This document shows, one piece after another, positions 366-41,633 of a stretch of DNA of 64,000 bases. The notes under the pieces are model-generated. The model ran no database searches. It was not told where the DNA came from and saw only the letters and a list, made by a program, of their open reading frames with translations. This stretch comes from Albula goreensis (lineage: Eukaryota > Chordata > Actinopteri > Albuliformes > Albulidae). The position numbers were made by a program, and so were the translations under genes. The first letter of the stretch is position 1; each line of letters opens with the position of its first letter. The DNA lies in contig CM040765.1 of the NCBI GenBank assembly GCA_022829145.1, forward strand, positions 15,573,292 to 15,637,291, given 5' to 3'.

Positions 366-2342
<1,977 letters not shown>

Positions 2343-3417
2343 CAGGAGGCTTGGGCCCCCCTGGCAGTGGTGATCTGTTGCCTGGGGACCTTAGGGCTCC
2401 ACACAGCCCTCTTCGCTTAGATAAAACTGACCCTCTACTTCCCCTTTATTTCCCACCGCCATTAGCAGACCCTTATATGATACAAACATATTCACTTACA
2501 CTACATCTACATTCACTGAATCTACATTCACACGTAAATATAGCCCAAAGTCATGCACGGGAAAGGGATAGTAGGTGCATTCCAAAGTGCTACATGTTAC
2601 TATCCATCCTCACTTCAATCCACCAAGCCTTAGAGAGACTGCTTACTAATGTCATCACATGTAACATGAAGAGTAACCCTTGATGAGGGCTTGAAGGTTT
2701 ACGGAGTAAACTTTGGAATGCAGCCTCTACAACTTTTGAACTTTTACCACACAGGTCTTTGTTTTTACTTTCCTTTTTTTACTTCAAAATCAGAGACCAG
2801 TTCACACCTGAGAAACAAGGTGAGGTGGGTGAACTTGAACTGTGCAATCAACTGCTGTAATGGAATGAGTGCTGAATAATGATGAACACTGACAGATTCT
2901 ATGGCTCTCGAGATTCAGTCATATCACAGTCAGTAATACCAAAAGATTGGGAATTTAAACTGAATCTTCATTCCTCCGTTTTTCATCTACGGTGGATTTT
3001 TTTGTCTGTTTTAGTTCTTCATTCACAGCACTGTTATTCCAATATAATTATATTTGTGTCCAGAAAAATACATATTCATCTTCCACACATTTAAAATTTT
3101 GTATGTAATAGGTGTGGTCTAATTTATCTGTAATCAAGTATTTACACATGAAATATATAATCCTGACAGGTAATATAATGTTTTAATTGTAAACCACTGT
3201 TTTCTTCATATACAAAATATATTTGTCTCTGTTTTAATGTTGTAGTTACTTATAGTAACACATGGTAGTGGCTTGAGCACTAAGTTATTGTAAAACAGTA
3301 GCCGTGTTCATTATGTCCAAAATACAGTCTCAGATTGCCTGCAGACAGAACCTTTTGCCACAGTATGTATGGCACAGTAAACTTGAATGGATTGGACAAT
3401 TCTGTAGAAACCACAGC

Positions 3418-3423
3418 AATAAA
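3418..3423 (+). terminator. Candidate poly(A) signal of kcnj8
   Basis: AATAAA about 1.08 kb after the kcnj8 stop codon, giving a 3' UTR close to the length I would expect for this gene. The sequence 2343-3417 is AT-rich with no conserved ORF. A second AATAAA at 4312-4317 could give a longer 3' UTR. Confidence 0.45.
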
Positions 3424-4930
3424 TATTATCCTTTGACATAAACATGCAGTTTTTGTTCACTTGTTTAATCGAAAGTTTTGATATCTCCTTTTGTCTGAAA
3501 AAATATTACCATACAAATATTTCCAAGTGCAATATTTCCATGTCCCCTTTAATCATATCTTACAGCTAAAGCTTCTTAAATTCAACACATTTTCAACTTC
3601 AACTGACAAGGTCATGTCACAGAAAATCAAATGCAAGACTTCTGTTCACAGATGGATGTCCCTTATTAGCCTCAGGTGGTATAAGTTCATGGTAATTGCT
3701 GAAGAAATACTTAAATATGTAAAGCCTGTTTTATTTTCTCTTAATTTAAGTAAAAGTTCAAGGTTTCATAACTGTGATCATTTCCCATGACCTACCAATG
3801 AACTGCAAAGTAGGGACAGCAGCTGTTTCTCATGAAAATGGGAACTCAGCAGCCACTCTCAGCAGGGAGCAACTGCTTTTGTGGTTCAGAGTGACATATG
3901 TTTGAAAACCCAAAATATGGTATTCCAGGGACAAATGGAAAATGCAAAACTTGTCAAAAGAATGAAGAGAGATGCCCAAACTTGTTTGTATAAACTGTAA
4001 ATGAGTTTTATTGTGTATGTAGAAAAGCAAGATGAAGTTTACGGCTGAATGACACCTTATGTGGGAAGATGTGTCTGAGCATGAGTGTTGTGTTAGCCAC
4101 CCGTAACAGCGTGTGTCATCCTTATACAAATATGCATGGTGAAAGCAAACACTGACAAAAATTAGAATTTGGGCTGCTTGGAAGGTCTGCTTTCCACATT
4201 TTGGCATAAATACCCGTGACAACTGTCACTCACCTGCCTGTTTAGTGCAGTCAGTGTGACTAGGAGGAATACCCCTTAACTGTACGATGTCAGAAAGTGG
4301 CAGATGAACAGAATAAAACTATCATTAATAAGTCAAGCCAGGCCCTACCTGATAGCATCTAGTGCAAATCTGTAGCACTGGCAATTTTACAAAATGTGGG
4401 GATTTTTCCAGTTTCAACATACTTTTAAGAGGTCATACATGTTCAATTTCAGCTTGGTAGTAAATTCAATACCTCATCAACACCAGGAGCTGCTGAAAAC
4501 TACACTGACCACAGATACCCCCTTTCCTCATGCAATCACACAAAATTCTGATTCCTTGGGTTTAGAGGCCCCGAAAAAAACGATACAGCAATCCTAAATG
4601 CCACTACATTTCCCCTCAGACACTGAACATACTTGTAAATGAAAAATGTCACTCCTTCTTATTTTTACAGAAATTCTTCAGCGATATTGGTTCAAACGAG
4701 CGGAAGTTGATTGATAATTTAATAAGCCTGTGCTAGCACTTCACCGGTTATGCTGGCTGTGTCGTCGATTAGCTGTTAACAACAGGAAGCCTAACACATG
4801 TATATTGTTATAGTATGTCGAAAACGTGCTGCCCTTCCATTTACAGAGTGAGTTTGTGGAAAATCCGTTCCATCGAGAACAAGGAAGGATGCATGGAAAA
4901 TATTCATGGGTAGGTCAGCCTTGGTCGGTT

Positions 4931-4967
4931 ACCTCACAACGTTAGTGATGGCTAACGTTTGTGAGGT
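4931..4967. repeat. Inverted repeat (hairpin), 15-16 bp arms
   Basis: Left arm 4931-4945 (acctcacaacgttag) and right arm 4952-4967 (ctaacgtttgtgaggt) are reverse complements except for one extra T, separated by 6 bp. Flanking bases (ggtt before, taac after) partly extend the pairing. It could be a mobile-element terminus or a structured RNA element. No product is assigned. Confidence 0.6.
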
Positions 4968-6332
4968 TAACTACTGTTAACTGAAATTGTGAGTATGGTA
5001 ACTATTTATACTCTTCCAACGCGCACACCTATTTGAAGCCAACGTCCAACAGGCGTTGTGAATTCCTAACGCATCCATCAGTTAGGTCATGGCTATGGGA
5101 AGACCAGAACGCCATTGTCGTATTATCAATTTTAGGACGTTTGTGCATGTGTGCGTAATTGTATTTTGACTATCTTAAACTGTCTGCTTATTTGGTCTGC
5201 AATACAATATAAACACTATGCGTCAGAGATGTACACCACATGTCCACAGCAGCGAAAGATTGTTATTTTCAGGGTAAATTTACAATTATTACTATATTAT
5301 TGCAATGGCTACGTTGGTCTTGGCCCTTATTCCTGCCGTCTAGCCTGTGGTGAATGAGTGCCATCTAGTGGTGAATACCAATCTTGCCATCTTCTAAACC
5401 TGAATAATTCATGTCATGTAACAAATGGAGTTGTTAAAAATTTAAACAAAGATAAACCACGGATTATACTGATAAATCAAAGATTATACTGACTTGAAAT
5501 GCTGTTCCAGGATGCTGTATTGTAAATGTCGGTATATTGCTCACCATCGCCGTCAACTTTGCCTGTAGGTGGTGTTTGTTCACTTTACCCAGTTAGAATA
5601 ATTGTACTGTTGCCTCGTGTAACGGTGGCTACGTCTACTGGTTGATGGGATAAGTTATCCTGGAATTATGGTAGCATGTGTTTGAATGCAGCAACCAACC
5701 CAAGATATTGGTTGGTATTGATTGGTAGCATAGAAATAAGGTACTCAACGTAATTGGCCAGCGGACTCGGCTATGTGAAATTTCAAATGTTCGCTGAATT
5801 TTATTTTAAGTAATGCTACGTTATGTAACTATGTAACGATAAGCCACTGACAGTGGGCTTTAATATTTAACTTTAATTTGACATCTGTTGTTCCAGTGCA
5901 TTAAATTAATGACTGTTGTGCGGAAACCTATCTGAAATGTGCTAGCTACATGTTATACAGTTGTTTCAAGTGATGCGTGTATCACTGCGCGTACTATGTT
6001 GCCAGTCATCTGTAGATTTACAAAGTAGCTGATTTCTTAAGTATGAATTGGAGCTGATAGTTGTATCTCTCGCTTCAAGAAGTCTTTGCTGGCACAGTAT
6101 TCACAGATCCTTGGTTGGGTTGTATCAGACGGAGCAGATAAAATGGGATGCTTTGTCTAATTGATTTTACTAGTTTTAGTGGTCAGCAAGGAATTGATGG
6201 GTCCTTGTGCACATAGCTGCGCATTTTTTTTTTATCTATGGACTTCATATCGGTTTAAATTGAATCAATCCGAGGCGCCTGTGCAAATCAGGGTTATAAT
6301 CGTGAACCTGTCGATGTACCTAGACACTATGA

Positions 6333-6340
6333 ATGCAAAC
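6333..6340 (+). promoter_or_regulatory. Octamer-like distal element of U4
   Basis: ATGCAAAC lies at about -250 relative to the U4 start, one mismatch from the ATGCAAAT octamer that is a standard part of distal sequence elements of vertebrate snRNA genes at about -220 to -250. I saw no clear ZNF143 site next to it, so this is tentative. Confidence 0.3.
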
Positions 6341-6524
6341 TCTGTTCTTGAGTGTGATGTATCCCGTCATGCAACGCGGTTGGCTACATTGTATATATTT
6401 TTAACTAACGTCGTGAAACAAAGTATTTGACGTTATTTGTAGCTTTACATGCTTACATCTGTTAGCCTCGCAGAGACCCTGCTTTATATACTTATCAGGT
6501 TGTAGAATAATAATCCTCGTAACA

Positions 6525-6540
6525 ACACCGTCGACTTGAC
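6525..6540 (+). promoter_or_regulatory. Proximal sequence element (PSE) of the U4 gene
   Basis: acaccgtcgacttgac lies at -61 to -46 from the U4 5' end, the position at which SNAPc binds in vertebrate snRNA promoters. It resembles the CACCGNGACTTGA-type PSE of human U2 (from memory). No TATA box lies at -25, as expected for a Pol II rather than a Pol III snRNA promoter. Confidence 0.65.
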
Positions 6541-6585
6541 AGTTATGTGTTACAGACAATACCTGTCCAGTACTGAGAGAAGGTT

Positions 6586-6729
6586 AGCTTTGCGCAGTGG
6601 CAGTATCGTAGCCTATGAGGTTTATCCGAGGCGCGATTATTGCTAGTTGAAAACTTTACCCAATACCCCGCCGTGACGACTTGAAATATAGTCGGCATTG
6701 GCAATTTTTGACGGTCTCTAAGGAGACTG
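6586..6729 (+). ncRNA. U4 spliceosomal snRNA
   Basis: A full-length 144-nt U4 small nuclear RNA, part of the U4/U6.U5 tri-snRNP that delivers U6 to the spliceosome. The 5' end AGCTTTGCGCAGTGGCAGTA, which forms U4/U6 stem II, is unchanged from human. Then come the 5' stem-loop kink-turn (ATGAGG...CCGAGG), the GAAAACTTTACCCAAT linker, the central GCCG...CGGC hairpin, the Sm site AATTTTTGA and the terminal hairpin GGTCTC-TAAG-GAGACT. Differences from human U4 that I can see are A29 to T at the kink-turn, A61 to G, T73 to A, a loop change also found in human U4-2, and a G-T wobble replacing an A-T pair in the last stem. None destroys a helix or the Sm site. With a PSE 46 bp upstream and a 3' box 10 bp downstream this looks like an expressed gene. 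Confidence 0.95.
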
Positions 6730-6738
6730 ATAATCAAA

Positions 6739-6752
6739 GTATAAAACAAGAA
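6739..6752 (+). terminator. 3' box of the U4 gene
   Basis: gtataaaacaagaa begins 10 bp after the mature U4 3' end and fits the snRNA 3' box consensus GTTTN0-3AAARNNAGA with small departures. In vertebrates the Integrator complex cleaves snRNA precursors using this element. Confidence 0.6.
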
Positions 6753-7358
6753 ATATGGTAATATGTGAAGGTTGCGTTTACACGTACCTCAACAGTTAAT
6801 TCATTTCACATGTGAAAGACTAATCTAAAATCTTCTCTAACAATAGGCAGGCGCGGATGGAAAATACGGAATGTGCAATAGTACACTGAAAATGTATTGA
6901 TTTGAACTGATGTAACATGTATCCAAAATATCATTTTTTCAGTATTACCTCTCAAGTTTTTTTATTTATTGGGAAAATACATAGATGACCTTTCTAAATA
7001 CGTATTCGCTTTAGTTATGTCTGGTTTCTGAGTTCAGTTCATTTATACAAACAGATAATTTCGAACAAATATCCTGTTTTCCGCATGCCATACTGAAATG
7101 CCATGTGCGCCTATCTCTCAGTTATTACGGTAGATGATGACGTATGTGTAGGAGGGTCCCGGTTCCTGTGTCTGGGCAGCGTAGTTGTACTACAAGCAAT
7201 GAACATTGTGTTTCGAATGCTGCTCTTCCACTCTCACCTTATCGAGATTCGCGATAAGTTTGTGATAGTCTTCAATAAAGTAAGTGCGTGCTCGCTTGCA
7301 AGCGGACAGTGTACACGGATGCGCAACTAAGTCCCGGAATTTCACACGCCCCCGATAG

Positions 7359-14768
<7,410 letters not shown>

Positions 14769-39501: not shown

Positions 39502-41633
39502 CAGAGAGAGAGAAAGTGCTGGACAGTTTGCATTTTGGATTTTTCCTTTCTCGTGTTCCCTGTCCGTAGGAATCCATTTGAATAAAAATCACCCAAAACT
39601 TTTCCCCATTTTACTTTACTGAAATTGATGTTTTCATCATTTTTTTTAAATGTCTCGATGGGGAAATCCTCTGATTGGAAAATCTCAACAATGACAACTT
39701 CATGAATAAAATTCATGAATTCATAAGCACTGGGAAATCAGTGTTTGTACTTTATCTCTCTGGTGTTATGGGAAGAATGTATAACTCAGCTGAGACAGGA
39801 AACAGGCAGTGATCAATAAACAAGTGTTCGTGTTTTGTCGAGGTGCTGGGAACTGGCCAGGAGACAGAGACAGGTTGCAAAGGAAATAAAAATGTGATCA
39901 ATACAAACAAATGTATGCTGGCTATACAGTAAATGCCAAGAGGAATGGCACTACCAGTGACTTATTGACGAGGCTTATATCTCTCTCAGCTAGCATGTTA
40001 TGGTAAAGCTTTATTTTTTATCATCCTTAAAAAATATGTAAAATATTTGTATGATGTATTTAATTTAAAGTTTTTATGGGTCTTCCTTAAAACCAGCCAA
40101 AGGCCTCACCACCCTAGCTAAGAAGATCCTTGCAGAAAAGAAAGTAATCCTGTATTACTTTCATTATCAGTATGAAGGGTTGTGCCAAAAGACAGGAAGG
40201 TGGCGCTATAGTAAGCATATGAAGTTATTAACTTTGAGTCTAACTTTAACTTTGGGTCAACCCCATGGCCTTTTAATCACCTGGTAGCTTTCACTGAGGT
40301 CACACAGGGCATTTAATGTAACATTACTTCTGATTTACAGAGATTTGTTAAATAGACCCTTAATTTTAAAAGCACCATAAATGCATAGAGGTCTCACATA
40401 AAATAATCTAAATGGATAACTTGGTTTTGTTCCCTGAGGGCTGTGTCATTAATTAAACCTTAAATACATAAATAATGATTTCTGTGCTGCTCTCGAGTGT
40501 GTAACCAATAAAGGAAGTGAAGATGCAGAATAACAAATACAAAGAGAGAAGGGGACTCATTAACCAGCGTCCGTTTATATTCCACAGTTCCCACAATGCA
40601 CTGCTGCAGTTTCAATTAAACAAAATGATCAGTGTTATCTGGTCTTCATTACTGCTGAGTCACTGTCATTCAGAGAAAGTATATACCAGCAGGAACACTG
40701 AGAACTTTCAGAAACTTTCTGAAATGCTATCATCATTATGTAATATGAATGAATTATGGTGAAATATGAAATATGGGGACTCACTGATAAGCCAGATAAG
40801 GCAGATTAAAAAGCCCACGATGCCACTTTCGGTAAGGTAAGGTTTGGTTCAGATAAGGTATGCTGAAGCTCACTGCAGCGTCTGTGCTATTAGACGGGAC
40901 ACAGCCATATTCAGGTGCCTGCCTGGTGGCCTGACCTCCATCTCAGCTGAGAATAATGCACTGAGGGATTGTTACTCAGGTACTCAGCTGAGCTGAGCCA
41001 TGACAGAGCAGGCTTCAACACTGACAAGATGACAAGAGTAAGAGGAGGTCCCCAGCCCGTTGTATAGCTCTGGTTGTGTGTGTACTTATACCATGTTGTG
41101 ACTCTTGTTGTGGAGAAGTAAGAGGGGTGTTTTTTTTTTATTTTTTACTGCTGCAAGACAATATTTTGTAGAACTGCTGCAACTCCCTGAAGGGGAGCAT
41201 AAAGATCAGTTGGATTTAATTATACTCAAGTGCCAAAGATCATATGTTTAATAAAAAAATATTCAGAAATAAACAAATCATAAAGTCACTGACTCTGTCA
41301 TGAACATAATCTATTGGAAAATTTCTATTCTATTCTGCACTAACACACACAAGCTCCTTAAGAGATGATAATATATTCTTCATTGAAGCATCTCCTGCTA
41401 AATCACTAACCACACCATGGTACAGAGGGGTCTCCCTGATGTTTAGCCTTGCAAATATGCTGCAGCTCTTGTGATTTTGTACGTCGCATTTGACTGGAGC
41501 CTGAACGGCCTGCAGCGCACTAACAGTGAGCATGCCCTTGGATCAGTGTGCTGACGGACTGAGACGGGCCGCAAGGGGAGCCAGGCACCAGGGGGGAGCC
41601 AGGCAGAGCCTGCAGCTGCCTCTGCCTCCACAA

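What the first reader, a model, noticed from the sequence alone, without database searches (positions are those of the whole stretch)
6525..6752. Complete U4 snRNA gene with PSE and 3' box between kcnj8 and cmas
Most U4 matches in vertebrate genomes are promoterless retro-pseudogenes. Here a full-length U4 with an intact Sm site and U4/U6 pairing regions has a PSE at -61 to -46 and a 3' box 10 bp downstream. The unit is only 656 bp from the cmas start codon and is hidden among shadow ORFs.
Basis: partly seen in the sequence, partly recalled or inferred. Interest (0 to 1): 0.75.

Follow-up and report, generated by a model that had tools for sequence, protein, structure and literature searches.

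The report
Ordinary U4 snRNA gene, bonefish
This is a normal-looking gene for U4, a small RNA of the machine that cuts introns out of messages, in a bonefish genome; it has the standard switches of its gene class and is a routine, expected find.

Summary
Rfam's U4 model matches window 6586-6726 (+) over its full length, 128.6 bits against a gathering score of 46; it is the only gathering-level RNA match in the 64 kb. The neighbours are kcnj8 and cmas. The kcnj8 protein points to the bonefish Albula goreensis or something nearly identical.

STAF site, octamer and PSE at this spacing occur together at 0 of 126,661 other anchors. There is no poly(A) tail or convincing target-site duplication.

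Most likely this is an active RNA polymerase II U4 gene. The 'rare among pseudogenes' argument is mammalian: a review names teleosts as lacking snRNA pseudogenes. New member of a known kind, low interest. Expression, copy number and conservation of the locus could not be tested.

The parts
6333..6340 (+). Octamer (POU2F1/Oct-1 site), ATGCAAAC, -253 to -246, part of the DSE
   Evidence: 7 of 8 match to the octamer. Octamers with up to one mismatch are not enriched in the window (124 found, 132.29 expected); it counts only by its position beside the STAF site.
6360..6378 (+). STAF/ZNF143 (SPH) site, TATCCCGTCATGCAACGCG, -226 to -208, part of the DSE
   Evidence: 16 of 18 specified positions of the published consensus YYWCCCRNMATSCMYYRCR (PMC5493778); 3 places in the 64 kb reach 16 in either orientation. 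A looser pattern with up to 3 mismatches is not above chance as a count (8 found, 4.75 expected, 13 of 100 shuffles reach 8); this site is one of 2 with a single mismatch.
6525..6543 (+). Proximal sequence element (PSE) candidate, -61 to -43, SNAPc site
   Evidence: 10 of 12 specified positions of TCACCNTNASNNNAAWRN with a one-base gap, 7 of 12 without; best ungapped match in the range is 9 of 12 at 6531
6586..6729 (+). U4 snRNA, 144 nt
   Evidence: RF00015, 128.6 bits over 6586-6726; fold with 5' stem-loop, 3' stem-loop and terminal stem-loop; stems I and II form with U6
6703..6711 (+). Sm site AATTTTTGA, n.118-126
   Evidence: direct reading with the region coordinates of PMC13253345
6739..6751 (+). 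3' box candidate, GTATAAAACAAGA, Integrator processing signal
   Evidence: 2 edits from GTTYN0-3AARRYAGA, 9 nt downstream of the RNA

Best explanation
A functional, RNA polymerase II-transcribed gene for the major-spliceosome U4 snRNA in a bonefish (Albula goreensis or something nearly identical), lying on the same strand between kcnj8 and cmas. Inferred mechanism: Oct-1 and ZNF143 bind the DSE at about -253 to -208 and help SNAPc bind the PSE at about -60. With no TATA box, Pol II starts at 6586. Integrator cuts the nascent RNA at the 3' box, and the trimmed 144-nt RNA assembles with Sm proteins at n.118-126 and pairs with U6 through stems I and II, holding U6 inactive until the spliceosome is activated. 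Shown here: the RNA sequence and fold, the motifs and their spacing. Inferred from family knowledge: transcription, factor binding, processing and function.
For: Full-length covariance match, the only gathering-level one in the window. Fold energy z -2.14; 2 of 200 shuffles fold as well. Stem I (-8.4 kcal/mol) and stem II (-23.8 kcal/mol) form with a recalled U6 sequence. Against a recalled human RNU4-2 there are 6 differences in 144, none in stem II, the T-loop, stem III or the Sm site; n.61 G pairs with U6 as G-U and n.128 G pairs as G-U in the terminal stem. STAF, octamer and PSE together at snRNA spacing: 0 of 126,661 other anchors. Published consensus sequences and layout (PMC5493778; PMC3499247). 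No poly(A) run after the RNA, longest flanking direct repeat found 7 bp, no other place in the window sharing a 12-mer with the U4.
Against: PSE, octamer and 3' box are each weak alone and were scored with human consensus sequences; the one-base gap in the PSE match was allowed after seeing the site. A looser STAF pattern is not enriched in the window, and the joint null rests on only 3 STAF-like places. One difference, n.29 A-to-T, lies in the k-turn, in a stretch (n.27-33) where changes are depleted in human RNU4-2 (PMC13253345); the main text of that paper gives no value for this change. No expression or comparative DNA data.
Confidence: 0.93

Rival explanations
1. A recent U4 pseudogene: a copied U4 sequence that looks intact but is not transcribed.
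For: The 3' box and PSE match only weakly; one difference falls in the k-turn; most metazoans studied carry snRNA pseudogenes (PMC5493778).
Against: Promoter elements lie outside the RNA, so a retro-copy would lack them, yet a STAF site, octamer and PSE candidate are present at snRNA-gene spacing. No poly(A) tail, no clear target-site duplication. Teleosts are reported to lack snRNA pseudogenes.
Confidence: 0.05
2. A special case of the best explanation: a stage-specific U4 variant gene (for example egg or embryo against adult) whose RNA differs in use through n.29.
For: Six differences from recalled human RNU4-2, including k-turn and stem I positions. Variant U1 genes with distinct promoters and embryo-biased expression exist (PMC5493778).
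Against: n.61 G matches the Rfam consensus, so it is common across U4 genes and not private. No second A. goreensis U4 copy was available for comparison; the genome search did not complete.
Confidence: 0.1

Closest known systems
U4 spliceosomal RNA (Rfam RF00015; human RNU4-1/RNU4-2)
   Same: Full-length match and fold, U6-pairing regions, T-loop, stem III, Sm site; 138 of 144 bases equal to a recalled RNU4-2
   Different: n.29 T, n.61 G, n.73 A, n.88 G, n.128 G, n.136 A against the recalled RNU4-2; a single unit in this window, between kcnj8 and cmas
Vertebrate Pol II snRNA gene unit (DSE, PSE, 3' box; no TATA)
   Same: Candidates for all three elements near the published positions (PMC5493778) and no TATA seen
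   Different: The PSE needs a one-base gap against the human consensus; the 3' box carries two edits

Membership tests
U4 snRNA (RF00015) | Covariance match above the gathering score over the full model | tested here: met
   128.6 bits against 46, model 1-138 of 138
U4 snRNA (RF00015) | Stem I and stem II complementarity to U6 | tested here: met
   cofold with a recalled U6 sequence; duplex energies -8.4 and -23.8 kcal/mol
U4 snRNA (RF00015) | 5' stem-loop k-turn for SNU13/15.5K | tested here: inconclusive
   The tandem G-A elements and flipped-out U read intact (k-turn anatomy recalled), but n.29 is T against A in a recalled RNU4-2 and in the Rfam consensus; binding not testable
U4 snRNA (RF00015) | Sm site between the 3' stem-loop and the terminal stem-loop | tested here: met
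   AATTTTTGA at 6703-6711
Vertebrate Pol II snRNA gene | DSE with octamer and STAF/ZNF143 site near -250 to -200 | tested here: met
   6333-6340 (7 of 8) and 6360-6378 (16 of 18); motif match only, no binding data
Vertebrate Pol II snRNA gene | PSE near -60 | tested here: inconclusive
   10 of 12 gapped, 7 of 12 ungapped; 984 of 42,320 anchors do as well as the gapped score
Vertebrate Pol II snRNA gene | 3' box shortly after the RNA | tested here: inconclusive
   2 edits; 655 of 6,396 40-bp stretches do as well
Vertebrate Pol II snRNA gene | No TATA box near -25 (which would mean Pol III) | tested here: met
   6550-6570 reads TTACAGACAATACCTGTCCAG, no TATA (by eye)
Vertebrate Pol II snRNA gene | Transcription by Pol II | not testable with these tools
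   no RNA or ChIP data held
Retro-pseudogene | Poly(A) tail and target-site duplication, no promoter elements | tested here: not met
   no A run over four in the 30 bases after the RNA; longest flanking repeat found 7 bp; DSE present

The most novel reading that the evidence does not exclude
The U4 unit points at cmas with only 656 nt between the RNA end and the cmas start codon. Pol II is reported to keep transcribing for a few hundred bases past snRNA 3' boxes, so U4 transcription could run over and influence the cmas promoter, tying output of a splicing RNA to a sialic-acid gene. The copy's k-turn change at n.29 might also mark a U4 variant with specialised use. Nothing here tests either.
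Probability: 0.07. Interest if true: 0.4.

Novelty: new member of a known kind. Interest (0 to 1): 0.1.

Why it matters
It adds one well-formed U4 locus, with its promoter candidates, to a deep-branching teleost genus. Such loci are useful when defining fish PSE and 3' box consensus sequences and when reading which U4 positions tolerate change (here n.29 and n.61), a question made topical by RNU4-2 disease variants. By itself it changes no view.

Tried and rejected
Whole-genome U4 copy number: the genome search on the window's own assembly did not complete. Exact scans for a U4 core in genome contigs and viral contigs, hoping for stray vertebrate contigs to compare, found 0. A fixed PSE pattern modelled on a recalled human U2 PSE did not find the site within 3 mismatches (12 hits elsewhere, 14.54 expected); the published consensus, with a gap allowed, was used instead. 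A second snRNA gene in the window: none at gathering level; six other Rfam matches up to E 1 are all below their gathering scores. ARAGORN found 0 tRNAs.

Papers. Passages seen: PMC5493778, PMC3499247, PMC13083260, PMC13253345, PMC4378963. All other papers were seen as search listings (titles, starts of abstracts) only, PMC9652321 among them. The 2008 study behind the review's teleost statement was not read. One search for a U4 gene with cmas and teleosts found no paper holding 3 of its 4 terms; that is the only ground for saying that I found no print record of this locus.

Full report
Observation. The sequence at 6586-6729 on the + strand is a U4 snRNA. Rfam's U4 model matches 6586-6726 end to end at 128.6 bits (gathering score 46, E 5e-29), and it is the only match at gathering level among 4,227 families in the 64 kb. 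With permissive filters six further matches up to E 1 appear, all below their own gathering scores. The 144-nt RNA folds with the expected 5' stem-loop, 3' stem-loop and terminal stem-loop (z -2.14; 2 of 200 shuffles as stable).

Where it is. A KCNJ8 protein of Albula goreensis (P0001, 397 aa; named, fetched) maps to the window at 100% over residues 1-121 and 287-397 and 99.4% over 121-286. It shares the odd residues HAATW that arise where the window's kcnj8 frame breaks, whereas the A. glossodonta protein (P0002) differs there. The window is therefore A. goreensis or something nearly identical: an elopomorph teleost. Downstream, the ORF at 7386 matches the cytidylyltransferase family and a solved cytidine monophospho-N-acetylneuraminic acid synthetase (1qwj, E 4.5e-16), and its first 82 codons find fish N-acylneuraminate cytidylyltransferases among the named hits, so cmas is right. 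kcnj8, U4 and cmas all lie on the + strand.

The RNA. Using the region limits of a saturation-editing paper (PMC13253345, passages), stem II, T-loop, stem III and Sm site are identical. The differences are n.29 (k-turn), n.61 (stem I), n.73 (between T-loop and stem III), n.88 (3' stem-loop), and n.128 and n.136 (terminal stem-loop). n.61 G equals the Rfam consensus and still pairs with U6 as G-U (duplex); n.128 G pairs as G-U. A cofold with a recalled U6 forms both stems. The change that gives pause is n.29: it also departs from the Rfam consensus, and changes in n.27-33 are depleted in the human assay; the main text of that paper gives no value for this one.

The promoter. Consensus sequences were taken from a review (PMC5493778, figure legend seen). 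The best ungapped match in the range is in another register, 9 of 12 at 6531, reached by 1,357 and 1,392 of the same anchors. The 3' box at 6739 needs two edits and is matched as well by 655 of 6,396 stretches of 40 bp; with the other published consensus (PMC3499247) by 437 of 6,396. So neither element would convince alone.

A STAF/ZNF143 site at 6360-6378 matches 16 of 18 specified positions; two other places in the window also score 16, near 40587 and 50717. It starts at -226, and an octamer (7 of 8) starts 27 bp before it, at -253: the published DSE layout. Controls against: a looser STAF pattern is not enriched in the window (8 found, 4.75 expected, 13 of 100 shuffles reach 8), nor are octamers with up to one mismatch (124 found, 132.29 expected), so the case rests on match quality and spacing. 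With the U4 locus left out (plus-strand anchors within 150 bases), 455 of 126,661 anchors have such a STAF site at that distance; 23 of these also have a PSE of this quality, 53 also an octamer, and none all three. This null is coarse because it rests on 3 STAF-like places, but it makes a chance promoter unlikely. I saw no TATA box near -25 (by eye), consistent with Pol II.

Gene or pseudogene. A retro-copy should lack upstream elements and carry a poly(A) tail and target-site duplications. The first 30 bases after the RNA hold 17 A's but no run longer than four; the longest flanking direct repeat found is 7 bp; no 12-mer of this U4 occurs elsewhere in the window.

Mechanism, shown and inferred. 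Shown: RNA, fold, motifs, spacing. Inferred from the known class: Oct-1 and ZNF143 on the DSE, SNAPc on the PSE, Pol II start at 6586, Integrator cleavage at the 3' box, Sm assembly, pairing with U6. A possible local consequence, untested, is that Pol II running on past the 3' box (a few hundred base pairs by PMC5493778; termination within 1.5 kb by a section title of PMC3499247) crosses the cmas promoter region, since the cmas ATG is only 656 nt beyond the RNA.

Verdict. A complete, probably active, ordinary U4 snRNA gene: a new member of a known kind. Not tested: expression, copy number and conservation of the locus, since no vertebrate DNA was reachable (genome search did not complete).

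Noticed in passing
window 1900-1945: The kcnj8 reading frame breaks here: homology to A. glossodonta KCNJ8 ends in one frame at about 1929 and resumes in another at about 1923. The deposited A. goreensis protein lacks the residues just after the break, as if the annotation spliced around it. Probably an assembly or sequencing slip, but a real lesion is not excluded; the A. glossodonta and Anguilla rostrata proteins are continuous there.
   Followed up: partly
window 40587-40605: A second STAF/ZNF143-like site (16 of 18) with no RNA family match near it; I read 40400-41000 without seeing what it serves.
   Followed up: partly
window 2196-2272: Short tandem repeat (period 18/36) in the kcnj8 C-terminal coding region, encoding repeated NSMR-type units.
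   Followed up: no
window 366-7386: kcnj8 and cmas are neighbours on the same strand with about 5 kb between them, too little for abcc9; in human, as I recall, ABCC9 lies between them and KCNJ8 is on the opposite strand to CMAS, so the block seems inverted here. From memory, not tested.
   Followed up: no
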